The notes under the pieces: model-generated
The model's input: only the letters and a program-made list of their open reading frames with translations
Databases searched by the model: none
Told to the model about the DNA's origin: nothing
Made by a program: the position numbers and the translations under genes
NCBI RefSeq assembly: GCF_021083185.1
Contig: NZ_JAIGQB010000001.1
Span: 372,001 to 436,000, forward strand
Length of the DNA: 64,000 nt
Reading direction: 5' to 3'
Source of the DNA: Nocardioides furvisabuli
Lineage (GTDB): Bacteria; Actinomycetota; Actinomycetes; Propionibacteriales; Nocardioidaceae
Shown here: in pieces, positions 16,553-26,966 of the stretch
How the letters are laid out: each line of letters begins with the position of its first letter
How positions within the stretch are numbered: position 1 is the first letter of the stretch

Positions 16553-16579
16553 CTGAGCCTCCCATGTGGGAGCGCTCAG
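16553..16579. terminator. bidirectional terminator hairpin between secreted-protein gene and korB
   Basis: CTGAGC CTCCC ATGT GGGAG C GCTCAG folds into an 11-bp stem with one bulged base. It lies between two convergent genes and overlaps the korB stop. No T tract follows, as is usual for high-GC actinobacteria. Confidence 0.6.
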
Positions 16580-17682
16580 AGGATCGTCCAGGTGTCGCCG
16601 CCGCCGATCAGTGCCGCCAGCCGCGCGGAACGGTCGGCGGCGTCGTCGTTCCCGGGCACGGTGCTCGCGGTGGCGACCTGCTCGCGGGCCGCGTCGTCGT
16701 ACGTCGGGCGCTGGACCTGGCGGAAGATGCCGATCGGCGAGGTGTTGAGGTAGCCCGCGTCGGTCAGGCGCGAGATCGCGAACGCCATCGTCGGGTCCGG
16801 GTTGTGCGCGTCGTGCACGAGGATGTCCTCAGCAGGGACGTCGGCCGTCGCGACGACCTTCACGCCACCGGTCTCCTCGTCGCGCACCAATGCCTTCGCG
16901 CCGCGGCCGTCCTCGAGCTGGGCGCCGAAGAGCACCGGCTCGCCGTGGACGAGCGGGATGATCGCGTCGGCCTTGGTGTCGGGCGACTTGATGGCGTCGA
17001 AGGCGCCGTCGTTGAAGATCGGGCAGTTCTGGTAGATCTCGACCAGCGACGTGCCGCGGTGCGCCGCAGCGGCCGCGAGCACCGAGGTGAGGTGCTTGCG
17101 GTCGGAGTCGATGGTGCGGGCGACGAACGACGCCTCGGCGCCGAGCGCGAGCGACACCGGGTTGAACGGGTGGTCGAGCGAGCCCATCGGGGTGGACTTG
17201 GTGACCTTGCCGGTCTCCGAGGTGGGGGAGTACTGCCCCTTGGTGAGGCCGTAGATCCGGTTGTTGAACAGCAGGATCGTCATGTTCACGTTGCGGCGCA
17301 GCGTGTGGATCAGGTGGTTGCCGCCGATCGACAGCGCGTCGCCGTCGCCGGTGACGACCCACACCGAGAGGTCCTCGCGGGCCGTGGCGATGCCGGTCGC
17401 GATCGTCGGCGCGCGGCCGTGGATCGAGTGCATGCCGTAGGTGTCGAGGTAGTAGGGGAACCGCGACGAGCAGCCGATGCCGGAGACGAAGACGATGTTC
17501 TCGCGGCGCAGGCCGAGGTCGGGCAGGAAGGACTGCACGGCCTTGAGCACGGCGTAGTCACCGCACCCGGGGCACCAGCGCACCTCCTGGTCGGAGGTGA
17601 AGTCCTTGCCCGTCTGCTTCTCGTCGGTCGTCGGGACCGACTCGGTGCCGGAGCGGAGGGCGGGAAGTCCCAGGTCAGTCAT
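16576..17682 (-). CDS. korB: 2-oxoglutarate:ferredoxin oxidoreductase, beta subunit (KorB)
   Basis: A 368-residue thiamine-diphosphate subunit of the KorAB 2-oxoacid oxidoreductase, which converts 2-oxoglutarate plus CoA to succinyl-CoA and reduced ferredoxin. The cluster and TPP-binding signature WCPGCGDYAVL is near residue 36; SGIGCSSRFPYY and HGRAPTIATG follow, then the TPP motif GDGDALSIGGNH with NNRIYGLTKGQ. It overlaps korA by 8 bp. In actinobacteria this pair can replace or back up the 2-oxoglutarate dehydrogenase complex; the low-potential electrons may feed biosynthesis. A C-terminal 100-residue extension is normal for KorB. Confidence 0.93.
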   Translation of the reverse strand: MTDLGLPALRSGTESVPTTDEKQTGKDFTSDQEVRWCPGCGDYAVLKAVQSFLPDLGLRRENIVFVSGIGCSSRFPYYLDTYGMHSIHGRAPTIATGIATAREDLSVWVVTGDGDALSIGGNHLIHTLRRNVNMTILLFNNRIYGLTKGQYSPTSETGKVTKSTPMGSLDHPFNPVSLALGAEASFVARTIDSDRKHLTSVLAAAAAHRGTSLVEIYQNCPIFNDGAFDAIKSPDTKADAIIPLVHGEPVLFGAQLEDGRGAKALVRDEETGGVKVVATADVPAEDILVHDAHNPDPTMAFAISRLTDAGYLNTSPIGIFRQVQRPTYDDAAREQVATASTVPGNDDAADRSARLAALIGGGDTWTIL

Positions 17683-19600
17683 CGTGGCTCTCCTGCTGGA
17701 TGGACGCGGGGGTGAGGTCGATGTCGATGCCCTCGGCCTCGGCGACGAGGCCGCCGATCACGTCGGCGAGCACGGCCGCCTTGAGGGGCAGGCCGCGGAC
17801 CTCGTTGTAGCCGACGACGTCGACGAGGTACTTCGCGCGCAGCAGCAGCGACAGCTGGCCGAGGTTCATCTCGGGCACCAGCACCTTGTCGTAGCGCTTC
17901 AGCACCTCGCCGAGGTCGTTCGGGAAGGGGTTGAGGTGGCGCAGGTGGGCCTGCGCGACGTGGTAGCCGGCCTTGCGCACCCGGCGTACGCCGGCGCCGA
18001 TGGGGCCGTACGTCGACCCCCACCCCAGCACGAGCACCTTCGCATCGCCCGTGGGGTCGTCGACCTCGAGAGGGGGCAGCGAGCTGGCGATCCGGTCGAC
18101 CTTCGCCTGGCGGGTGCGGACCATGAAGTCGTGGTTGGCGGGGTCGTAGGAGATGTTGCCGTGCCCGTCGCCCTTCTCGAGCCCGCCGATGCGGTGCTCG
18201 AGGCCGGGCGTGCCGGGGATCGCCCAGGGACGCGCCAGCGTGGCCTCGTCGCGGAGATAGGGCCAGAACTCGGCGTCGTCGCCCGAGCCCTGGTTCTTCT
18301 CGGTCGCGAAGTCCGGGTCGATCGCCGGCAGCTCGTCGAGTCCGGGGATGCGCCACGGCTCGGAGCCGTTGGCGAGGTAGCCGTCGGAGAGCAGCATCAC
18401 GGGGGTGCGGTAGGTGACCGCGATCCGCACCGCCTCGACGGCGGCGGCGAAGCAGTCGCCGGGCGACTGCGGCGCCACGATCGGCACGGGCGCCTCGCCG
18501 TTGCGGCCGAACATCGCCTGCATCAGGTCGGCCTGCTCGGTCTTGGTCGGCAGCCCGGTCGAGGGGCCGCCGCGCTGGACGTCGACGACCACGAGCGGGA
18601 GCTCGGTCATCACCGCGAGGCCGATCGCCTCGGACTTCAGCGCGACACCGGGGCCGGAGGTGGTGGTGACGCCGAGCTGTCCGGCGAAGGAGGCGCCGAT
18701 CGCGGCGCCGACGCCGGCGATCTCGTCCTCGGCCTGGAACGTCGTCACGCCGAAGCCCTTGTGCTTGCTGAGCTCGTGGAGGATGTCGGAGGCCGGGGTG
18801 ATCGGGTACGAGCCGAGGAAGACCGACAGCCCCGACTGCACGCCGCCGGCGATGAGGCCGTAGGACAGCGCCAGGTTGCCGGTGATGTTGCGGTAGTTGC
18901 CCGGCGCCATCTTGGCGGGCTTGATCTCGTAGCGGACGACGAAGGCCTCGGTGGTCTCGCCGAAGTTCCAGCCTGCCTTGAAGGCCGCGATGTTGGCGTC
19001 GCGGATGTCGGGCACCTTCGCGAAGCGCTTGGCCAGGAAGGCGTTGGTCGTCTCGGTCGGGCGGCCGTACATCCACGACAGCAGGCCGAGGGCGAACATG
19101 TTCTTGGCCCGCGAGGCGTCCTTGCGCGAGAGGCCGAACTCCTTGACCGCCTCGATCGTCATGCCGGTGAGGTCGACGGTGTGGAGGGCGTACTCCGCGA
19201 GGGTGTCGCCGTCGAGGGGGTTCTCGGTGTAGCCGGCCTTCGTGAGGTTGCGCGCGGTGAAGTCGTGGGTGTCGACGATGATCGTCGCGCCCTTGGACAG
19301 GTCGCCCAGGTTGGCGCGCAGCGCGGCGGGGTTCATCGCGACCAGCACGTCGGGGGCGTCGCCCGCGGTGAGGATGTCGTGGTCGGCGAAGTGCACCTGG
19401 AACGACGAGACTCCCGGGAGCGTGCCCTGGGGCGCGCGGATCTCGGCCGGGAAGTTCGGGAGCGTCACCAGGTCGTTGCCGAAAGCCGCGGTCTCCTGGG
19501 TGAACCGGTCTCCGGTGAGCTGCATGCCGTCGCCGGAGTCGCCCGCGAACCGGATGATGACGCGGTCGAGCTGCTTGACCTCTTTTTCGGGTGCTACCAC
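17675..19600 (-). CDS. korA: 2-oxoglutarate:ferredoxin oxidoreductase, alpha subunit (KorA, gamma-alpha fusion)
   Basis: A 641-residue subunit with an N-terminal gamma-type domain (about residues 8-190, starting KQLDRVIIRFAGDSGDGMQ) fused to the alpha pyrimidine-binding domain (about 230-460, with GSYPITPASDILHEL and the active-site strand TTSGPGVALKSEA). The C-terminal third holds the remaining CoA-side domains. The GTG at 19600 is preferred over an in-frame ATG at 19666 because the extra N terminus would be Arg-rich and non-conserved, and a -10-like hexamer lies between the two. It is translationally coupled to korB. Confidence 0.92.
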   Translation of the reverse strand: MVAPEKEVKQLDRVIIRFAGDSGDGMQLTGDRFTQETAAFGNDLVTLPNFPAEIRAPQGTLPGVSSFQVHFADHDILTAGDAPDVLVAMNPAALRANLGDLSKGATIIVDTHDFTARNLTKAGYTENPLDGDTLAEYALHTVDLTGMTIEAVKEFGLSRKDASRAKNMFALGLLSWMYGRPTETTNAFLAKRFAKVPDIRDANIAAFKAGWNFGETTEAFVVRYEIKPAKMAPGNYRNITGNLALSYGLIAGGVQSGLSVFLGSYPITPASDILHELSKHKGFGVTTFQAEDEIAGVGAAIGASFAGQLGVTTTSGPGVALKSEAIGLAVMTELPLVVVDVQRGGPSTGLPTKTEQADLMQAMFGRNGEAPVPIVAPQSPGDCFAAAVEAVRIAVTYRTPVMLLSDGYLANGSEPWRIPGLDELPAIDPDFATEKNQGSGDDAEFWPYLRDEATLARPWAIPGTPGLEHRIGGLEKGDGHGNISYDPANHDFMVRTRQAKVDRIASSLPPLEVDDPTGDAKVLVLGWGSTYGPIGAGVRRVRKAGYHVAQAHLRHLNPFPNDLGEVLKRYDKVLVPEMNLGQLSLLLRAKYLVDVVGYNEVRGLPLKAAVLADVIGGLVAEAEGIDIDLTPASIQQESHDD

Positions 19601-19608
19601 AAGCAGAG

Positions 19609-19614
19609 ACGATA
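19609..19614 (-). promoter_or_regulatory. -10 element of korAB, near-leaderless
   Basis: TATCGT on the minus strand, 8 nt before the korA GTG. It gives a transcript with at most a base or two of leader and argues against the longer upstream start. Confidence 0.5.
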
Positions 19615-19769
19615 GCCGCCGGTCCCGCGCCGACCGGGGCTTCCTGCCCTGTGGGACGGCCTCCACGCCTGCGGTGTGACAGGGGTCATGTCGATCGGGC
19701 CCCGGCCGGGTGGGCGCCCCGAGGGGTGAGGGCGTACGCCGTGGGGGCGCGTGCTAGCCCCGCAGCCAC

Positions 19770-19781: not shown

Positions 19782-20438
19782 GTGCACACCTCGACGACGA
19801 CGGCGGACGAGCTCTGGGCCGCGGTCGAGACCTTCGATGCGGAGGCTGCGGAGGTCGCCATCGCGCGGCTGCTGTGGGACGTGCCGCTGTCGGGGGCGGT
19901 CACGGGTGTCGTGCTGCCGTTCCTCCGCGAGGTCGGCGACCGCTGGGAGGCCGGCACCCTGTCGGTGGCGCACGAGCACTTCGTCACCGACATGCTGCGC
20001 CGAACCCTGTCTGCCCTGGCCGCGGTCCCGCCGCAGCAGGTGCTGGACGACGCCTCGGCGCCGTCGCCCGTGGTGCTGCTGGCCTGCCCGCCCGGCGAGC
20101 GTCACGACCTGGTGCTGCTGTGCGTCGCGCTGATGCTGCGCGAGCGCGGGGTCCGGGCCCGCTTCCTGGGTGCCGACACCCCGATCCCTGCGATCCTCGC
20201 CGCGGCCCGGGTCACGGGGGCGGCGGCGGTCGTGCTGGCCGCGACCCGACCCACAGCCTTCACCGCCCACGCGTCGTCGCTGCGCCGTCTCGCCCAGGAC
20301 TGCGCGCTCTATGCCGCGGGCCGCGGTGCGGACGACCAGGCCGTGGCCGAGATCGGCGCGGCCCCGCTGCCAGACGACCCGGTGCGGGCCGTGGTCTTCC
20401 TCGTCGGCGCGCTGATGGGGCTCACCGACAGCTGGTGA
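19782..20438 (+). CDS. stand-alone cobalamin-binding protein with CarH-type light-sensor signature
   Basis: A 218-residue cytosolic protein made only of the two modules that follow the MerR domain in CarH/LitR photoreceptors. Residues about 8-85 form the four-helix cap, with the motif W55-X9-E65-H66 that contacts the upper face of adenosylcobalamin in CarH. Residues about 93-210 form the Rossmann-like B12 domain with E106-R107-H108, whose His would be the lower axial ligand; the Gly of the usual (D/E)XHXXG motif is replaced here by Val or Leu. FLGADTP matches the CarH strand that follows. There is no helix-turn-helix. It could sense light or B12 and act through a partner; no partner gene is adjacent. 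Convergent with the methyltransferase gene. Confidence 0.82.
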   Translation: MHTSTTTADELWAAVETFDAEAAEVAIARLLWDVPLSGAVTGVVLPFLREVGDRWEAGTLSVAHEHFVTDMLRRTLSALAAVPPQQVLDDASAPSPVVLLACPPGERHDLVLLCVALMLRERGVRARFLGADTPIPAILAAARVTGAAAVVLAATRPTAFTAHASSLRRLAQDCALYAAGRGADDQAVAEIGAAPLPDDPVRAVVFLVGALMGLTDSW

Positions 20439-20633: not shown

Positions 20634-20671
20634 CTGAGCGGGCCGCGCCGCCGGCCTCGGCAGCCGCTCAG
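20634..20671. terminator. GC-rich hairpin between convergent genes
   Basis: CTGAGCGG at 20634 and CCGCTCAG at 20664 form a perfect 8-bp stem closing a GC-rich inner hairpin. It overlaps the methyltransferase stop codon and probably terminates transcription from both sides. The rest of 20439-20633 shows no gene or recognised riboswitch. Confidence 0.55.
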
Positions 20672-21318
20672 CCCTGGCGTTGGAGCAGGATGGCGGTGAA
20701 CTGCTGGCGCGTGCCCCAGGGTGTGACGTGGTCCTCCCCGCTGGTCGACACGAGTCGGTAGCCGGGGAACTCCGCGGCAAGCTCGGCATGGGTGTAGCGC
20801 ACGATCGGCAGACCGCTGCAGGTCAGTGGTCCGTCGGGACCGAAGGTGGCGACCACCACGAAGCCGCCCGGCTCGAGGCAGTGCTCGAGAGACAGCCGGT
20901 AGTCGTCGCGCTCGTCCTCCTCGGTGAGGAAGTGGAAGACCGCGCGGTCGTGCCACAGCGCGAACTGCCGGGGAGGGCGGAAGTCGAGGACGTCGGCCAC
21001 GTCGAGGACGAGCTGTCCGGGGACCTCGCCCACCCGATCGCGCACGGTGTTGAGGGCCGTCAGCGACAGGTCGATCGCCGTGAGGTCGGTGTAGCCCCGC
21101 TCGACGAGGTGGTCGACCAGCGTCGACCAGCCCGCACCCACGTCGATCACGGAGCGCTCGCGTCCGAGCCCGGTCTCGTCGACGAGCCCGAGCGACAGCT
21201 CCGGCACGGACTGCCACCACGAGACACCGTCCTCGGGCTTCCCGTCGTGGACGTTCTCCCAGTAGTCGGATCGGGCGACGCCATCCGCGGGTCTGATCGG
21301 AGCAGCGGCAGGTTCCAT
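20668..21318 (-). CDS. class I SAM-dependent methyltransferase
   Basis: A 216-residue soluble enzyme with the Rossmann methyltransferase fold. Motif I is VIDVGAGWSTLVDHL (about residues 62-76), the acidic strand-2 end is TAIDLS, and the motif IV region is ALWHDRAVFHFL. The N-terminal signature YWENVHD...VSWWQ and the late CSGLPIVRY stretch mark a specific bacterial subfamily whose substrate I do not know; small thiol or chalcogen compounds are a guess from context only. It is transcribed away from the TusA-radical SAM operon across a 109-bp region containing a perfect palindrome, suggesting joint control. ATG start, probably leaderless. Confidence 0.85.
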   Translation of the reverse strand: MEPAAAPIRPADGVARSDYWENVHDGKPEDGVSWWQSVPELSLGLVDETGLGRERSVIDVGAGWSTLVDHLVERGYTDLTAIDLSLTALNTVRDRVGEVPGQLVLDVADVLDFRPPRQFALWHDRAVFHFLTEEDERDDYRLSLEHCLEPGGFVVVATFGPDGPLTCSGLPIVRYTHAELAAEFPGYRLVSTSGEDHVTPWGTRQQFTAILLQRQG

Positions 21319-21325
21319 GCATCCG

Positions 21326-21331
21326 ACCCTA
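21326..21331 (-). promoter_or_regulatory. -10 element, leaderless promoter of the methyltransferase gene
   Basis: TAGGGT on the minus strand, 7 nt before the ATG at 21318. Confidence 0.5.
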
Positions 21332-21366
21332 TGCCGGGGCGCCGCACCGGGGTCAACGGCCGCCTG

Positions 21367-21380
21367 TCACCGATCGGTGA
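21367..21380. promoter_or_regulatory. perfect 14-bp palindrome, candidate operator
   Basis: TCACCGATCGGTGA, a perfect palindrome in the intergenic region between the divergent methyltransferase and TusA-radical SAM genes. It lies about 36 bp upstream of the -10 of the right-hand operon and about the same distance from the left-hand -10, a position suited to a shared dimeric regulator. No regulator gene is found beside it. Confidence 0.55.
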
Positions 21381-21415
21381 GGAGTCGACCGTGGGCCAGC
21401 CGGGCACACGAGACG

Positions 21416-21421
21416 TAGGTT
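21416..21421 (+). promoter_or_regulatory. -10 element, leaderless promoter of the TusA-radical SAM operon
   Basis: TAGGTT ends 6 nt before the ATG at 21428, so the operon mRNA probably begins at the start codon. No clear -35 box is seen. Confidence 0.55.
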
Positions 21422-21427
21422 GGTCCC

Positions 21428-22540
21428 ATGGTCACTCCCGGCTCAGCCCCGACCACCACTCCCGTCGGTGACGTGGCTCGCCTGATCGACGGGGGAGACA
21501 TGGACTGCGGCAGCGGACTCCTGCTGCTCATCACCCGCGCGATGCGGCGGCTCGACAGTGGAGACCTGCTGGCTGTTCGTAGCGCGGAGGCCAGTGTCGT
21601 CACCGACCTCCCGGTGTGGGCCGAGCTGGTCGGCCACGAGGTCGTCGTCGAGCTGGCCGAGACCCGGGGCGGACCCTGGTGGTTCGCGGTGCGCAAGGAC
21701 GGTGCGGGCGCCGATGGGGTCGCCCGCCCGGAGGCCGGGACGGTGTTCAGCACCGGTGGCCGGACGCCCGTCGGCCATCGCCTCTGGGCCTACACCAACT
21801 TCGACTGCAACCTCGCCTGCCTCTATTGCTGCGCCGAGTCCTCCCCGAAGGCCGATGCCCGGCGCCTGGATCCCGAGGTCGTCGGGCCGCTCTTCGCCCA
21901 GTTCCGCGACCAGGGGGGCAGGGAGCTGCTGCTCACGGGGGGTGAGCCTTTCATGCACCCCCAGCTCGGCGAGCTCGTCGATGCGGCCGCCGGCCTCGAG
22001 CGCACGATCCTCACCAACGCGATGGTCTTCGGCCGCGGGCGTCGTCGCGAGCTGCTCGAGTCGATCGACCGCGACGTGGTCATGCAGGTGAGCCTGGACT
22101 CCGCGACGCCCGAGATCCACGACAGGATGCGCGGCGCCGGATCATGGGCACGAGCGCTGGACGGGATTGGTCTGGCCCACTCGCTGGGTTTCCGGGTCAA
22201 GATCGCCGCGACGCGGCTCGACGAGGACCCGGAGGGGGTGCGGGAGTTGCACGAGCGTCTCGATGCCGAGGGGATCGCGCAGGAGGATCGGGTCATCCGG
22301 CCCGTCGCCGCCGAGGGGTTCGCCGACAGCGGCATCCATGTCTCCATCGACTCGCTGGAGCCCGAGCCGGTGATCACCGCCGACGGCGCCTGGTGGCACC
22401 CGGTCGCGGTGACCAACCCCCACATGCGCATCGCCGACGCGCCGCTGGACCTCGACGAGATCTTCGGGGTGGTCCGCGACACGTTGCGGGTGCAGGATGC
22501 GGCGTCCGCCGCCGGCCGGGAGGTGTTCCGCTGTGCATGA
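21428..22540 (+). CDS. TusA-like domain fused to a radical SAM enzyme
   Basis: A 370-residue fusion. Residues about 20-78 form a TusA/SirA-like sulfur-carrier domain: D26-C27-G-S-G followed by LLLLI, and later the family-like stretch DLPVWAELVGHEVV. The catalytic CPXP of classical TusA is replaced by this DCGSG type, leaving C27 as the only candidate persulfide carrier. Residues about 115-330 are a radical SAM barrel with cluster ligands C127, C131 and C134 (CNLACLYCC) and the GGEP motif. There is no full SPASM domain, but the extreme C terminus ends FRCA. First gene of an operon with DoxX and a PhnDCE-like importer. Its product is unknown; handling sulfur or selenium is inferred from the carrier domain and the transporter. 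Confidence 0.85.
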   Translation: MVTPGSAPTTTPVGDVARLIDGGDMDCGSGLLLLITRAMRRLDSGDLLAVRSAEASVVTDLPVWAELVGHEVVVELAETRGGPWWFAVRKDGAGADGVARPEAGTVFSTGGRTPVGHRLWAYTNFDCNLACLYCCAESSPKADARRLDPEVVGPLFAQFRDQGGRELLLTGGEPFMHPQLGELVDAAAGLERTILTNAMVFGRGRRRELLESIDRDVVMQVSLDSATPEIHDRMRGAGSWARALDGIGLAHSLGFRVKIAATRLDEDPEGVRELHERLDAEGIAQEDRVIRPVAAEGFADSGIHVSIDSLEPEPVITADGAWWHPVAVTNPHMRIADAPLDLDEIFGVVRDTLRVQDAASAAGREVFRCA

Positions 22541-23489
22541 GTCGCTCAGGAGCAGAGTGAGCGCCCCGCTGGGCTGGGCACTGGATCCCACCCCGGCCGA
22601 CAACGCCCGGGCACAGTCCATCGCCGTCGCCGTCCTGCGCATCCTGCTGGGGCTCATGTGGCTCTACAACGTGTCGTGGAAGCGGGCGCCCGACTTCGGC
22701 GAGGACGCGGGCAACGGGCTCTACAAGTTCACGAAGTACGCCGTCGACTACCCGGTCCTCGCCCCCTACGCCTGGGTCACCGACAACCTGATCCTGCCCG
22801 TGTTCCCGGTCTTCGGCTGGGTCGTGCTGATCGCGGAGACCGCCCTCGCCGTGATGCTGCTGACCGGCACCCACGTCCGCCTCGCGGCGCTCATCGGGCT
22901 CGGCCAGTCGCTGGCCATCGGGCTCTCCGTGGCGTACGCCCCCCACGAGTGGCCGTGGTCCTACTTCCTCATGATCGGTGCCCACCTCGTGCTGGTCTTC
23001 GCTGTCGCCGGACGGGTCCTCGGCACGGACGGCGTCCGATCGGGCCACACCTCGGGCCGCACCCTGGGCCAGGTGTGGGCGGGGTTGGCGATCGTGACCG
23101 GGGGCGTCTCGCTCGTCAGGTCGCTCGATGACCCGGTCGCGGCCCGCGGTCCGCTCCTCGGCGACAGCGATCCCTCGCTGTCGCTGGGGGCCTACAACCT
23201 CGTCGGCTCCCTGGTGCTCGTCACCATCGGCGTACTGCTCCTGCTGGGGGTGCGTGCAGCCATGTCCCGGACCTTGCTCCTCGTGGCCGCTGCCCTCGGC
23301 CTGCTGGCCGCAGCGTCGTTGCACGCCCAGCTCGGGTTCACCGACCCGATCCTCGGCGGCAACCCGACATCGGCTGCCTTCTTCCTGTCCGTGGCCGTCG
23401 TCGCCCTCCTCGTGGGACGAGCCCCGTCGCACACCGCCACCCCTTCCGGCGCCGCCCCCACATCCCGACCAGAGAGCGACCAGCCATGA
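22533..23489 (+). CDS. DoxX/DoxD-type integral membrane protein
   Basis: A 318-residue membrane protein with about seven or eight hydrophobic segments. The first half (VLRILLGLMWLYNVSWKR, then a periplasmic loop, AETALAVMLLTG and HEWPWSYFLM) resembles the DoxX/DoxD and MauE-like superfamily, members of which belong to thiosulfate:quinone oxidoreductase or assist thiol redox processes. The GTG at 22533 was chosen for its strong ribosome binding site GGGAGGTG spaced 7 nt and its 8-bp overlap with the upstream gene; an alternative GTG is at 22557. It could link the pathway to the quinone pool (inference). Confidence 0.78.
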   Translation: MHESLRSRVSAPLGWALDPTPADNARAQSIAVAVLRILLGLMWLYNVSWKRAPDFGEDAGNGLYKFTKYAVDYPVLAPYAWVTDNLILPVFPVFGWVVLIAETALAVMLLTGTHVRLAALIGLGQSLAIGLSVAYAPHEWPWSYFLMIGAHLVLVFAVAGRVLGTDGVRSGHTSGRTLGQVWAGLAIVTGGVSLVRSLDDPVAARGPLLGDSDPSLSLGAYNLVGSLVLVTIGVLLLLGVRAAMSRTLLLVAAALGLLAAASLHAQLGFTDPILGGNPTSAAFFLSVAVVALLVGRAPSHTATPSGAAPTSRPESDQP

Positions 23490-24454
23490 CGCGCACCATC
23501 GCGACGTCCACCTCCATCACCCGCCTGGCCACGAGTCGCCGCGGGCTGTTCGTCGGCGCCTCCGGCCTGGTGCTCCTGGCCGCCTGCGGCAACGACGACT
23601 CCTCACCGAGCGGAGCCGGCGGTGACACCGCGTCGAACGCCGGCCCGCTCCCGATCTCGGCGATCCCGGACCAGGATCCCGAGGTGCTGAACCGTCTCTA
23701 CGGCGACGTGGCAGCACGCTTCGCCGAGGCCACCGGGCTCGAGGTCACCTACACGCCTGTGACGGAGTATCCCGCTGTCGTGCGCGGCTTCGAGGTCGGC
23801 GACCTCGCGATCGCCTGGATGGGTGGACTCACGGGGGTCCAGGCCGCCCAGCGCGTGGCAGGCGCCACCGCGTTCGCCCAGCGCAACATCGACGCGGAGT
23901 TCACCAGCCTCTTCATCGCGACCCGGAAGTCCGGCCTGTCACCCTTCGACGATGTCGACGGGTTGAGCAGGCTCGCCGGTCACTCGCTCACGTTCGGTTC
24001 CGAGACCTCGACGTCGGGCCGCCTGATGCCGCAGTACTTCATGGACCAGGCGGGCCTGTCGATCGACGACCTGAAGGGCCAGCCCGGCTTCTCCGGCTCC
24101 CACGACGCGACCATCGAGGCCGTGGCGTCCGGCAGCTTCGAGGTGGGGGCGGTCAACGAGCAGGTCTACACCGCCACCGTGGACGCGGGCGAGGTCGACC
24201 TCTCCGACGTGGTCGTGCTGTTCCGGACCCCTCCCTACTACGACTACCACTGGCTGGCCCGGCCTGACGTGGACGAGGTCTACGGTGCGGGCACCCTCGA
24301 CAAGGTCAAGGACCTGCTCTTCGGACTCGATCCGTCGGTGCCGGACGACGCCGCGATCCTCGACCTCTTCGGCGCCGAGTCCTTCGTCCCCACCGAGAAC
24401 TCCAACTACGACCAGATCCGCGATGTCGCCGAGGAGCTGGACCTGCTCGCGTGA
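23486..24454 (+). CDS. PhnD-like ABC transporter substrate-binding lipoprotein
   Basis: A 322-residue periplasmic-binding lipoprotein. The signal has a twin-arginine pair (R18, R19 in SRRGLF) and a lipobox LLAAC with C34 as the lipidated Cys. The mature part has PhnD-family features: ISAIPDQDPE at the start, IAWMGGLTGVQA, the anion-loop stretch GSETSTSGRLMP and GFSGSHDATIEAVASG. From memory, SAIPDQ plus GGLTGVQA points to the clade named 'putative selenate ABC transporter' (TIGR04553) rather than to phosphonate binders. It overlaps the genes on both sides by 4 bp. The ligand is not proven by sequence. Confidence 0.85.
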   Translation: MTRTIATSTSITRLATSRRGLFVGASGLVLLAACGNDDSSPSGAGGDTASNAGPLPISAIPDQDPEVLNRLYGDVAARFAEATGLEVTYTPVTEYPAVVRGFEVGDLAIAWMGGLTGVQAAQRVAGATAFAQRNIDAEFTSLFIATRKSGLSPFDDVDGLSRLAGHSLTFGSETSTSGRLMPQYFMDQAGLSIDDLKGQPGFSGSHDATIEAVASGSFEVGAVNEQVYTATVDAGEVDLSDVVVLFRTPPYYDYHWLARPDVDEVYGAGTLDKVKDLLFGLDPSVPDDAAILDLFGAESFVPTENSNYDQIRDVAEELDLLA

Positions 24455-25194
24455 ACGAGCACGTCGTACGCCTCGAGGGCGCCGGACGCAGCTTCGGCGC
24501 CAGCACCGCGCTGACCGGCGTCGACCTCACGATCCGGGCGGGTGAGCGCGTCGCGGTGCTCGGGGCGAGCGGCGCCGGCAAGTCGACCCTGCTCGCGCTG
24601 CTCAACGGCTCGCTCCAGCCGTCGGAAGGCAGCGTGGAGCTCTTCGGTGCTGCCACCGCCGGGCTGCCGGCGCGCACCCGACGGGGGTTGCAGCGCCGAG
24701 TCGGGACCGTCTCGCAGGGACTGGACCTCATCGAGCAGGTGCGGGTCCTGCACAACGTCAATGCGGGGCGGCTCGCCGAATGGGGTACGCCGCGCGCGCT
24801 CGCCTCGCTGGTCTGGCCGCATCCCGACGAGCGCGCGCTCGGCGCACTGGAGGCGGTCGGGCTCGGCTGGGCGGTGCACGAACGCACCGAACGGCTCTCC
24901 GGGGGTGAGCGACAACGAGTCGCGATCGCCCGGCTGCTGATCCAGCGACCCGACCTGGTCCTGGCCGACGAGCCGGTCGCGAGCCTCGACCCGACCCGAG
25001 CCGCCGAGGTGCTGGGGCTGCTGGGTCGGGCGACGGACTCGCGCGGCACCCTGGTGGTGACGCTCCACCAACCCCAGCTGGCGCGCGACCACTGCACACG
25101 GGCCATCGGGTTGCGAGAGGGCCGACTCGTGTTCGACACCCCCATCGCCGACCTCGCGAGTCACCTCCTCGACGAGCTCTACGCGCGGGCCTGA
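24451..25194 (+). CDS. PhnC-like ABC transporter ATP-binding protein
   Basis: A 247-residue importer ATPase. Walker A is GASGAGKST (near residue 38), the Q-loop is VSQGLDLI, the signature is LSGGERQRVAIARLL, Walker B is LVLADEP, and the switch His lies in TLHQPQ. All catalytic motifs are intact. The insert after the Q-loop (GRLAEWGTPRALASLVWP) is typical of PhnC. GTG start overlaps the stop of the binding-protein gene. It energises uptake through the fused permease encoded next. Confidence 0.92.
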   Translation: MNEHVVRLEGAGRSFGASTALTGVDLTIRAGERVAVLGASGAGKSTLLALLNGSLQPSEGSVELFGAATAGLPARTRRGLQRRVGTVSQGLDLIEQVRVLHNVNAGRLAEWGTPRALASLVWPHPDERALGALEAVGLGWAVHERTERLSGGERQRVAIARLLIQRPDLVLADEPVASLDPTRAAEVLGLLGRATDSRGTLVVTLHQPQLARDHCTRAIGLREGRLVFDTPIADLASHLLDELYARA

Positions 25195-25211
25195 GTCGCC
25201 CATGAGCCGCC

Positions 25212-26966
25212 ATGACTGACCTCGTCGAGGTCGCACGCCACGATCGGGACCCGACCGCCGGTCCCGACCGGGCAGGTAGACCCCCGTCGTCGTGTCGGGT
25301 GACGGGACGGCAGGTGGCGTTGCGCCGGGGAGCGGGAGCGCTGATCGTTCTCCTCCCTCTCACCTGGGCGCTCCAGCGCGCCCTGCCCCAGGGCGGTGAC
25401 ATCGTCAACAGGGGTGGCGTGCCGCTCATCGGCGACCTGCTCGGCAAGGCATGGAGTCCTCGCCTGGACGGCGAGTTCCTGGAGGTGGTGGTCGACGCCG
25501 CTGTCACCACGCTCGCCTTCGCCGCACTCGGCACGGCAGGGGCGCTGGTGATCGGCCTGCTCGGCGGGCTGGTGCTCAGCGACGTCGCCTGGGCACGCCG
25601 TCCGCCGTGGCCGGTGCGCACCGTGCGGACCGGGCTGCGCGGGGCGTTGGTGGCGATCCGGTCGATCCACGAGCTGGTCTGGGCGCTGCTGCTGGTGAGC
25701 GTGCTCGGTCTGGATCCGCTGGTCGCGGTGCTGGCGATCGCCCTGCCCTTCGGGGCGCAGACCGCGCAGGTCTTCGGGGACACCTTCGACGCGCTGCCGA
25801 CCCGCGCCCTCCGGGCACTGCGCGACGCTGGTGCGCCGGCTGCGCCAGCCGTCGCGTTCGCGCTGCTGCCTCCGGCCGGACCGCTGATGCTGTCGTACGC
25901 CTTCTACCGCTTCGAGTGCGCGGTGCGGTCGACCGTGCTGCTGGGCGCGGTCGGCGTGGGTGGGCTGGGTCAGGAGTTGGTCGTCAGTCTCAGCTCGCGC
26001 AACTGGGACGAGGTCTGGACGCTGGTCGCGGCGGTGATCGTGTTGTCGGCGGTCGTCGATGCGTGGAGCGGGCGGCTCCGCACCGACATGGCCGTGGCCA
26101 GCTGTTCGGAGTGGTCCGCCGGTGACGCTGGAGGCGCTGCAGGCACGGGCGGGCGTCGGCCCGGCTCGAGGTGGGCGCGTTGGTCGGCGATCGCCGCAGC
26201 GCCCGGGCTCGTCGTCGCCTGGTTCGCATCCGGGGTGTCGCTCTCGGGCCTCACCAGCGAACGCACCCGCATGCTGGCCGGCCGCCTCCTCGACGACCTG
26301 GTCCCGCCGGCACTCCCCAGGGGAGGGGCGGGCGAGGTGACGGCGGCGGTCCTGGACACACTGGCCATGGCGGTGCTGGCGATGGCGATCGCCGTCCTCA
26401 TCACCCTGGTCGTCTCGCCGTGGGCCGTCGCTGTCCGCCGCGGCACCGGTCCACCGGGGGGACTCGCCATGCGGTCCCTGCGGTGGATCTCCTGGCTGGT
26501 GGCCCGGATCGTCCTGCTGGTGCTGAGGTCGGTCCCACCGACGGTGTGGGCGGTGATCGCGCTGCTCGCGCTCTTCCCCGGCGTGCTCCCCGGAGCGCTC
26601 GCCCTCGGCGTCTACACCGGCGGGGTGCTGGGCCGGCTCGTCGCCGAGTCGTGGGAGAGCGTGAGCCCGGCACCGCGCGAGGCGCTCGTGCGCACCGGCG
26701 TGCCCGGCGCGGTCGCCACGGTCGCTGCCGTCGTTCCCGCCTCGGCGCAGCAGCTGGTGACCTTCACGCTCTACCGGTTCGAGATCTGCGTGCGTGAGAC
26801 GGCGGTCGTCGGCATCGTCGGCGCCGCCGGGCTCGGCCGCCTGCTGGCGGAGAACCTGAACTTCTTCCGCTTCCCGGTCGTGATGACGCTGCTGATCGCG
26901 TCGTTCGCGGTCAGCGTCGCCAGCGAGGTGGCCAGCCGTCGGCTGAGGCGCGCGATCCGGGCATGA
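25212..26966 (+). CDS. PhnE-like permease, two transmembrane domains fused
   Basis: A 584-residue permease with about twelve hydrophobic helices in two BPD_transp_1 domains. The first EAA-like loop is ALLPPAGPLMLSYAFYRFEC with VGGLGQELV; the second is VVPASAQQLVTFTLYRFEICVRE with AAGLGRLLAENL. PhnE proteins normally have one domain of about 270 residues and dimerise, so this is a tandem fusion. The two halves are clearly related but diverged. A charged linker of about 40 residues (near 290-330) joins them. Last gene of the operon. Confidence 0.88.
   Translation: MTDLVEVARHDRDPTAGPDRAGRPPSSCRVTGRQVALRRGAGALIVLLPLTWALQRALPQGGDIVNRGGVPLIGDLLGKAWSPRLDGEFLEVVVDAAVTTLAFAALGTAGALVIGLLGGLVLSDVAWARRPPWPVRTVRTGLRGALVAIRSIHELVWALLLVSVLGLDPLVAVLAIALPFGAQTAQVFGDTFDALPTRALRALRDAGAPAAPAVAFALLPPAGPLMLSYAFYRFECAVRSTVLLGAVGVGGLGQELVVSLSSRNWDEVWTLVAAVIVLSAVVDAWSGRLRTDMAVASCSEWSAGDAGGAAGTGGRRPGSRWARWSAIAAAPGLVVAWFASGVSLSGLTSERTRMLAGRLLDDLVPPALPRGGAGEVTAAVLDTLAMAVLAMAIAVLITLVVSPWAVAVRRGTGPPGGLAMRSLRWISWLVARIVLLVLRSVPPTVWAVIALLALFPGVLPGALALGVYTGGVLGRLVAESWESVSPAPREALVRTGVPGAVATVAAVVPASAQQLVTFTLYRFEICVRETAVVGIVGAAGLGRLLAENLNFFRFPVVMTLLIASFAVSVASEVASRRLRRAIRA

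What the first reader, a model, noticed from the sequence alone, without database searches (positions are those of the whole stretch)
20668..26966. Candidate undescribed module: methyltransferase facing a TusA-radical SAM / DoxX / PhnDCE-like operon
Six genes form two divergent transcription units around a perfect palindrome. The right-hand operon pairs a carrier-domain radical SAM fusion, a quinone-linked-type DoxX membrane protein and a complete anion importer with overlapping genes. The importer's binding protein has SAIPDQ and GGLTGVQA, which I associate with the 'putative selenate' clade, and TusA-like proteins handle persulfide or perselenide. A selenium (or other oxyanion) uptake, reduction and methylation module would explain all parts. 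No selD or selA is in the window, so classical selenocysteine use is not shown.
Basis: partly seen in the sequence, partly recalled or inferred. Interest (0 to 1): 0.75.

Follow-up and report, generated by a model that had tools for sequence, protein, structure and literature searches.

The report
Radical-SAM module for unusual envelope sugar
A conserved six-gene set (a radical enzyme fused to a sulfur-carrier-like domain, a methyltransferase, a membrane protein and an oxyanion importer) is found in actinomycetes that also carry a gene cluster resembling the one for methylthioxylose, a surface sugar of the tuberculosis bacillus, and it is predicted to import a selenium- or sulfur-type oxyanion and likely builds it into a similar methylated sugar.

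Summary
The six genes are real and form a conserved module: in 25 named-genome loci with the radical SAM protein, 18 to 21 keep each partner. The radical SAM and membrane proteins belong with the uncharacterised Rv1681 and Rv1678 families; a sister architecture (Rv1678-Rv1681 type) has an acyl-CoA-dehydrogenase-like flavoprotein and a cytosolic binding-protein homologue instead of importer and methyltransferase. The binding protein is TIGR04553 'putative selenate', but its nearest solved relative binds phosphite and phosphate with the same direct contacts; in two other genomes of the window's genus a related binding protein lies about 5 kb from selA and selD. The window's genome has no selD.

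The new finding is a link to sugar chemistry. All 15 class genomes with the radical SAM family carry the epimerase of a methylthioxylose-like (MTX) cluster, against 181 of 394 overall; in a second survey the two lie within 16 kb in 6 of 10 genomes. The window's genome has an MTX-like cluster 229 kb away. I propose that the module supplies a methylated selenium (or sulfur) 5-deoxysugar precursor to that pathway. The link is strong; element and chemistry are inferred. The palindrome is not conserved.

The parts
20668..21318 (-). Class I SAM-dependent methyltransferase, divergent from the operon, module-specific orthologue group
   Evidence: Methyltransf_25 32 bits; hits over 300 bits in only 3 of 394 class genomes, exactly those with rSAM plus importer; next best 189 bits
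21367..21380 (.). 14-base perfect palindrome in the divergent intergenic region; not conserved, probably no functional weight
   Evidence: in none of 21 intergenic regions of relatives; 13 perfect palindromes of 14+ bases in the window
21428..22540 (+). TusA-like/radical SAM fusion protein, Rv1681-like
   Evidence: PF04055 74.5 bits; NF049973 321 bits, cut-off 380; conserved family
21506..21508 (+). Codon of Cys27 in DGGDMDCGSG, aligned by eye with the TusA catalytic Cys
   Evidence: present in 16 of 16 type A-side rows and in 0 of the 5 others (4 type B, L028) of A2
21806..21829 (+). CxxxCxxC motif (CNLACLYC) of the radical SAM core, followed by an invariant extra Cys (C135)
   Evidence: invariant in 21 of 21 rows
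22532..22534 (+). Codon of invariant C-terminal Cys369
   Evidence: invariant in 21 of 21 rows
22533..23489 (+). DoxD/DoxX-like membrane protein fused to an Rv1678-type C-terminal membrane domain; GTG start assumed
   Evidence: NF049986 77.8 bits, cut-off 50; a relative passes DoxD; the two halves are separate genes in L014
23486..24454 (+). Predicted lipoprotein binding protein of a PhnDCE-type importer (lipobox judged by eye)
   Evidence: TIGR04553 301 bits, cut-off 250; direct contacts of PhnD1 conserved
24451..25194 (+). ABC ATPase, PhnC-like
   Evidence: PF00005 110.8 bits; TIGR02315 201.9, cut-off 266.1
25212..26966 (+). Double-length PhnE-like permease (two fused halves)
   Evidence: TIGR01097 280.4 bits, cut-off 216.7, two stretches

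Best explanation
The window holds a conserved six-gene module (methyltransferase, TusA-radical SAM fusion, DoxD-like membrane protein and PhnDCE-type importer) that likely supplies a methylated-chalcogen 5-deoxysugar precursor to a methylthioxylose-like envelope-sugar pathway predicted from genes elsewhere in the same genome, with selenium, probably imported as selenite, the likeliest element. Shown: the gene set, its conservation, its co-occurrence and partial physical linkage with the sugar cluster, the conserved TusA-type cysteine, and the importer's family. Inferred mechanism: (1) the importer takes up a small pyramidal oxyanion (selenite first, sulfite or thiosulfate possible); (2) cellular thiols reduce it and the TusA-like Cys27 would hold it as a perselenide or persulfide; (3) the radical SAM domain would join it to the 5'-deoxyadenosyl radical, as ArsS does with arsenic; (4) the methyltransferase would methylate the selenol or thiol to an analogue of 5'-methylthioadenosine; (5) the MTAP, nucleotidyltransferase-like DUF2064, epimerase, MtxS-like and GT-C proteins would turn this into a polyprenyl-linked 5-methylseleno- (or methylthio-) pentose for the cell envelope; (6) the DoxD-like protein would couple a redox step to quinone.
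For: Module conserved in Nocardioides, Phycicoccus, Micromonospora, Streptomyces, Blastococcus, Geodermatophilus, Mycolicibacterium and others. Methyltransferase hits over 300 bits occur in 3 of 394 class genomes, the same three that have rSAM plus importer. MTX-like epimerase (EPIM, E up to 1e-40) in 15 of 15 genomes with an rSAM hit over 250 bits (my cut; 10 pass the curated one) against 181 of 394 overall (Fisher p 6e-6; by genus 9 of 9 against 52 of 137, p 1e-4; no correction for kinship), in 23 of 24 named rSAM genomes and in 10 of 10 of a second survey. Linkage: rSAM within 13 kb of EPIM in 5 of 15 class genomes (chance about 2e-8 if independent) and within 16 kb in 6 of 10 of the second survey, G082 being in both; the importer-type locus L014 has GT-C, DUF2064, GT2 and EPIM beside the module. 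The window's genome has DUF2064-GT2-GT-C-EPIM-MTAP together (L148). The same cluster in G082 lies beside menA and fabH, the order I recall for M. tuberculosis Rv0533c-Rv0541c; MtxS (Rv0539) and MtxT (Rv0541c) of that cluster serve the methylthioxylose cap (figure legend in PMC8780516). TusA-type Cys in 16 of 16 type A-side rows. Selenium: related binding proteins lie about 5 kb from selA and selD in two rSAM-less genomes of the window's genus, in mnmH-importer-selD order in Sphaerotilus and near selA/selB in Paracoccus; in G387 the module ends 2.6 kb from selA and a selB-like gene. rSAM adenosylation of arsenic is known for arsenosugars (passage in PMC12159101).
Against: In the window's genome module and sugar cluster are 229 kb apart, in G166 and G387 over 1 Mb, and only 1 of 25 named loci (L014) has EPIM in the fetched flanks. 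EPIM is common without the rSAM (166 of 379 class genomes; 81 of 108 in the second survey), and the EPIM profile was built entirely from rSAM genomes. The element is unproven: the direct contacts are the same in phosphite/phosphate-binding PhnD1 and in the selenium-linked L162, L221 and L222; three of seven other importer loci examined showed no selenium gene; selD is over its cut-off in only 14 of 37 rSAM genomes searched and not in the window's. If the element were sulfur, ordinary 5'-methylthioadenosine would make the module look redundant. The Rv1678-Rv1681 type lacks the TusA Cys, the methyltransferase and the importer. The methyltransferase fold is generic and the rSAM model is poor around its cluster. 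That the sugar cluster makes methylthioxylose outside mycobacteria is similarity only.
Confidence: 0.34

Rival explanations
1. Sulfur version: the module serves the same sugar pathway, but the imported oxyanion is sulfite or thiosulfate and the product is methylthioxylose or an oxidised or otherwise altered form of it; no selenium is involved.
For: Same link to the MTX-like cluster. The sister architecture carries a FadE16 flavoprotein; among its next hits, all far below their cut-offs and mixed with ordinary acyl-CoA dehydrogenases, are a 3-sulfinopropanoyl-CoA desulfinase (115 bits), SfnB (96) and DszC (71). A relative of the membrane protein passes DoxD of thiosulfate:quinone oxidoreductase. 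The window's genome lacks selD. Methylthioxylose is a sulfur sugar reported from the M. tuberculosis complex (passage in PMC10675199).
Against: 5'-methylthioadenosine is already available to this pathway through the MTAP in the cluster; of seven other importer loci examined four have selenium genes. One (L161) has nitrate, nitrite-reductase and siroheme genes, which could also suit sulfite.
Confidence: 0.27
2. Phosphorus version: the importer takes up phosphite, phosphate or methylphosphonate as the closest solved PhnD1 does, and the radical SAM enzyme and methyltransferase act on a phosphorus compound or on a separate substrate.
For: Nearest solved relative 7s6g (282 bits, 49% identity) binds phosphite more tightly than phosphate or methylphosphonate (PMC10284923), and its direct contacts are conserved in 10 of 10 importer-type binding proteins aligned.
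Against: A phosphate importer has no obvious role in a TusA-rSAM operon (inference); selenium-linked relatives have the same contacts. I did not search the loci for phosphonate-processing genes.
Confidence: 0.14
3. One reading: a stand-alone selenium uptake, reduction and methylation (detoxification or volatilisation) module with no tie to sugars.
For: TIGR04553 importer, TusA-type Cys and methyltransferase; selenium-linked importers in relatives; TehB and the sulfur methyltransferase 4nec are among many fold matches of the methyltransferase.
Against: Does not explain why the rSAM family is nearly confined to genomes with the MTX-like epimerase or lies beside it in several genera, nor the need for a radical SAM enzyme.
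Confidence: 0.12
4. Arsenic version: an arsenosugar-like pathway with arsenite or arsenate import and rSAM adenosylation of arsenic.
For: Architecture resembles ArsM plus ArsS plus TIGR04282 glycosyltransferase; the one DUF2064 neighbour scanned (L014) matches TIGR04282 'arsenosugar' at 111.6 bits (cut-off 134).
Against: rSAM scores 48 bits on ArsS TIGR04167 (cut-off 300); the methyltransferase has no ArsM hit in NCBIfam. I did not search the loci for ars genes.
Confidence: 0.04

Closest known systems
Rv1678-Rv1681 families (NCBIfam NF049986, NF049984, NF049985, NF049973)
   Same: Radical SAM core with extra and C-terminal Cys, the DoxD-like membrane protein, a PhnD-fold binding-protein relative, and linkage to the MTX-like cluster
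   Different: They have a FadE16 flavoprotein and a cytosolic binding-protein homologue with His-Cys in place of the Asp-Tyr ligand cap; no importer, no module methyltransferase, no TusA Cys
MTX (5-deoxy-5-methylthioxylose) cap pathway of lipoarabinomannan, MtxS/MtxT cluster
   Same: The window's genome carries MTAP, epimerase, DUF2064, GT2 and GT-C genes together
   Different: In the passages seen no radical SAM, importer or separate methyltransferase is named for it; the window module is 229 kb away
Arsenosugar pathway (ArsM, ArsS)
   Same: Works-like analogy: oxyanion element, methyltransferase, rSAM adenosylation, 5-deoxy-5-heteroatom pentose (sugar structure recalled)
   Different: ArsS and ArsM families not met; a TusA-like domain and importer instead
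PhnD1 of marine picocyanobacteria (7s6g)
   Same: Family, motifs and direct pocket contacts
   Different: 49% identity, separate clade (100/100 for the 9 importer-type rows), Ser123 that holds a buried water is Thr, different operon

Membership tests
NF049973 Rv1681 family radical SAM | score over curated cut-off 380 | tested here: not met
   321.1 bits; a close sister, not a member of the curated equivalog
NF049986 Rv1678 family membrane protein (C-terminal domain) | score over cut-off 50 | tested here: met
   77.8 bits
TIGR04553 putative selenate binding protein | score over cut-off 250 | tested here: met
   301 bits
TIGR04553 putative selenate binding protein | ligand is a selenium oxyanion | tested here: inconclusive
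   selenium genes in 4 of 7 other loci examined; a proven phosphite/phosphate binder scores 337 on the same model
PhnD phosphonate binding protein TIGR03431 | score over cut-off 261.1 | tested here: not met
   103.9 bits
TusA PF01206 | score over gathering 28.6 | tested here: not met
   22.7 bits
TusA PF01206 | catalytic Cys at the CPxP position | tested here: met
   Cys of CGSG in 16 of 16 type A-side rows; the Pro residues are Gly (CPxP and the by-eye alignment are recalled)
MTX-type sugar pathway | MTAP, epimerase, DUF2064, GT2, GT-C together in the genome | tested here: met
   L148; the DUF2064 match is weak (85 bits); gene set of M. tuberculosis partly recalled
MTX-type sugar pathway | methylthio- or methylseleno-pentose in the envelope | not testable with these tools
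   needs chemistry
Selenophosphate-dependent selenium use | selD in the genome | tested here: not met
   best 69.9 bits, cut-off 125, genome listed 100% complete
ArsS arsenosugar rSAM TIGR04167 | score over 300 | tested here: not met
   48 bits

The most novel reading that the evidence does not exclude
A SelD-independent selenium pathway in actinomycetes: selenite is imported, carried on a TusA-like cysteine inside a radical SAM enzyme, joined to the 5'-deoxyadenosyl radical, methylated, and installed in the cell envelope as 5-methylselenoxylose through the methylthioxylose machinery; the orphan Rv1678-Rv1681 genes would be the sister arm that decides who makes this type of cap.
Probability: 0.18. 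Interest if true: 0.92.

Novelty: new variant of a known kind. Interest (0 to 1): 0.68.

Why it matters
Methylthioxylose is a diagnostic cap of tuberculosis lipoarabinomannan. A conserved radical SAM module that tracks its gene cluster across actinomycetes gives the uncharacterised Rv1678-Rv1681 families a testable role, and suggests a new route by which selenium or sulfur enters a bacterial surface sugar without selenophosphate. A 2022 review says no high-affinity selenium transporter had been identified (passage in PMC9312934); this importer family is a candidate. It also warns that the 'putative selenate' label TIGR04553 covers proven phosphite/phosphate binders.

Tried and rejected
Palindrome as an operator: rejected, not conserved. 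Classical selenium use: no selD in the genome; selD patchy in the family (14 of 37). Homology of the module's methyltransferase to the one beside selD in Sphaerotilus: rejected (20 bits, E 0.03). Arsenosugar membership: rejected by scores. Pocket residues as a test of selenium against phosphorus: uninformative. Fold searches: the rSAM model (mean pLDDT 76.5) matches BlsE, SuiB, viperin and MoaA types at TM about 0.4-0.5; the methyltransferase model (75.0) matches many class I enzymes, among them 4nec, TehB and halide methyltransferases; neither fixes a substrate. Papers: searches showed no paper, in their listings (capped at 10 to 40 rows), linking Rv1678-Rv1681 or a TusA-radical SAM fusion to methylthioxylose or selenium sugars; one search found one paper with the 'putative selenate' name, seen in the listing only. 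Passages only were seen of PMC13188914 and PMC9312934, neither naming TusA or PhnD. The Angala 2017 paper is not held, so its content, including the origin from methylthioadenosine, is recalled apart from citations in the passages. Of 78 distinct loci, L031-L083 (53, up to 37% identity, radical SAM superfamily only) were dropped before counting. Of 945 plasmid records with a binding-protein match (30 listed) I looked at four. L025 has its rSAM split over two frames and was left so; its rSAM is not in A2 or A3.
Full report
What is there. The window holds a methyltransferase gene on the minus strand facing a plus-strand operon of five genes with tight or overlapping junctions. The first operon gene fuses a TusA-like domain to a radical SAM core; then come a DoxX/DoxD-like membrane protein, a lipoprotein-type binding protein, an ATPase and a double-length PhnE-like permease. 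The radical SAM protein is a sister of NCBIfam 'Rv1681 family' (321 bits, cut-off 380) and the membrane protein passes 'Rv1678 family' (77.8, cut-off 50).

Conservation. One scan of named bacterial genomes gave 78 loci; 25 (L006-L030, from 24 genomes) hold true relatives of the radical SAM protein and the rest only the superfamily. In these 25, 20 have the methyltransferase, 21 the membrane protein, 20 the binding protein, 19 the ATPase and 18 the permease; some misses are contig ends, and L028/L029 (Solirubrobacteraceae) have the other architecture. The methyltransferase is specific: of 394 class genomes only three have a hit over 300 bits (next best 189), the same three that have rSAM plus importer. 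The importer is less exclusive: TIGR04553 is over its cut-off in 6 of 394, three of them without the rSAM.

Two architectures. Type A is the window's. Type B (for example G082, G183, G102, G043) has an acyl-CoA-dehydrogenase-like protein, a cytosolic binding-protein homologue and the radical SAM protein, with the membrane protein near by. Scanned members pass their NCBIfam models: FadE16/Rv1679 653 bits (cut-off 600), Rv1680 499 and 493 (400), Rv1681 513 (380). The TusA cysteine (DGGDMDCGSG) is present in all 16 type A-side rows (two of them, L024 and L125, without the module methyltransferase) and in none of the 5 others, of which L028 starts later; C127, C131, C134, C135 and C369 are invariant in all 21. 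In the type B binding-protein homologue the ligand-capping Asp-Tyr pair of PhnD1 is His-Cys in 8 of 8 rows, so it is probably an enzyme or covalent binder (inference).

The link to a sugar pathway. Around module copies in several genera lie a GT2 glycosyltransferase, a DUF2064 protein, GT-C proteins and a GalE-like epimerase (EPIM) with a Cys-bearing insert kept in 11 of 12 rows. All 14 rSAM genomes searched have a GT2 hit, which alone says little, GT2 being common. In 11 of the 13 stretches fetched around such hits the GT2 stands with DUF2064 and EPIM; the two others (L149, L154) are second, weaker GT2 hits. In G082 the order is GT-C, DUF2064, GT2, two unassigned genes, EPIM, S-methyl-5'-thioadenosine phosphorylase (MTAP), menA, fabH, which is the order I recall for M. 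tuberculosis Rv0533c-Rv0541c, the methylthioxylose (MTX) cluster; MtxS = Rv0539 and MtxT = Rv0541c are stated in a figure legend of PMC8780516. The window's genome has DUF2064-GT2-GT-C-EPIM-MTAP together at G000:C1:153000-171000 (L148; MTAP 388 bits on NF005876, cut-off 306), 229 kb from the module.

Counts. The epimerase profile A1, built entirely from rSAM genomes, hits 181 of 394 class genomes at E 1e-40 or better; all 15 genomes with an rSAM hit over 250 bits are among them (Fisher p 6e-6; by genus 9 of 9 against 52 of 137, p 1e-4). Ten of the 15 pass the curated rSAM cut-off; one (G371) is divergent and partial, and without it the count is 14 of 14. Of 24 named rSAM genomes 23 have EPIM; the miss is L023, a 2.6-Mb MAG. 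In a second survey, the genus of G082, 10 of 118 genomes have the rSAM and 91 of 118 EPIM; all 10 have both, and in 6 of 10 they lie within 16 kb; in one they are 1.5 Mb apart and in three on different contigs. In the class survey 5 of 15 lie within 13 kb, three (all type A, the window's included) lie 0.2 to 1.9 Mb apart and seven are on different contigs; chance for 5 or more is about 2e-8 if genomes were independent, which they are not. Among the named loci only L014 (Streptomyces sp. AP-93) has EPIM in its flanks, with GT2, DUF2064 and GT-C; L017, L018 and L027 have a related GT-C gene, L018 also DUF2064. The AP-93 genome has a second EPIM-like frame elsewhere, with one in-frame stop.

The importer's ligand. 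The nearest solved relative, Synechococcus PhnD1 (7s6g, 282 bits), binds phosphite better than phosphate or methylphosphonate; phosphate is held by Y44, S124-T125-S126, H156, D203 and Y204, with D11, N174, T65 and S123 in support (PMC10284923, abstract and sections 6-8 read). The direct contacts and D11, N174 and T65 are kept in 10 of 10 type A proteins aligned; S123 is Thr. 7s6g itself (266 residues) scores 337 bits on TIGR04553, so the name 'putative selenate' is no test. Context points to selenium in 4 of 7 other loci examined: importer between mnmH and selD in Sphaerotilus; near selA, selB and formate dehydrogenase in Paracoccus; binding protein about 5 kb from selA and selD in G063 and G380, two genomes of the window's own genus without the rSAM. 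In type A genome G387 the module ends 2.6 kb from selA and a selB-like gene (231 bits, cut-off 242). The other three, Rhodobacter with nitrate genes, Palleronia, and the G390 neighbours scanned, showed no selenium gene. Phosphite and selenite have similar pyramidal shape (established chemistry), so one pocket could serve either.

How it most likely works. Combining an oxyanion importer, a TusA-type cysteine inside a radical SAM enzyme, a dedicated methyltransferase and a pathway that handles 5-deoxy-5-methylthio pentoses, I propose that the module makes a methylselenium (or methylsulfur) analogue of 5'-methylthioadenosine for the MTX-like pathway. The chemistry has a precedent in arsenic: a radical SAM enzyme adenosylates arsenic in oxo-arsenosugar formation (passage in PMC12159101). 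Methylation, adenosylation, element and product are all inferred. Sulfur would make the module look redundant beside MTAP, which favours selenium; the lack of selD and the type B architecture argue for caution. A review calls MTX a residue unique to M. [quoted passage not shown] EPIM is in most genomes of the G082 genus and the rSAM in about one in twelve, so the rSAM arm may be what marks true producers; this is a suggestion only.

Verdict. The selenium reading is plausible but unproven; the tie to a methylthioxylose-like sugar pathway is the main new result and makes the function testable in harmless actinomycetes.

Noticed in passing
window 19782-20438 (+): CarH-like cobalamin-binding protein without the DNA-binding part (98 bits on NF052513, cut-off 400), just left of the methyltransferase; no match of 60 bits or more in the 25 relatives' loci.
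   Followed up: partly
window 16576-19666 (-): Two long overlapping reading frames that look like a 2-oxoacid:ferredoxin oxidoreductase pair (judged by eye, not scanned).
   Followed up: no
L116 8635-9450, L114 10489-11307 and relatives: Cytosolic PhnD-fold proteins (Rv1680 family) in which the Asp-Tyr ligand cap is His-Cys in 8 of 8 rows aligned; possibly an enzyme made from a binding protein.
   Followed up: partly
L116, L151, L156, L157, L158: A response regulator and/or histidine kinase gene stands inside the MTX-like cluster in several genera (L158 kinase and L151 regulator by eye).
   Followed up: partly
NCBIfam TIGR04553: The model named 'putative selenate' scores the proven phosphite/phosphate binder 7s6g at 337 bits, so the name is unsafe for annotation.
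   Followed up: yes
L126 (G387): Module ends 2.6 kb from selA and a selB-like gene, with an ISL3 transposase gene between them.
   Followed up: partly
L025 10001-11073: The radical SAM gene of this Lapillicoccus MAG is split over two frames.
   Followed up: no
L011, L012, L014 methyltransferase-rSAM intergenic regions: Three Streptomyces loci share a 12-base palindrome TCAGCCGGCTGA just before the rSAM start, different from the window's.
   Followed up: no
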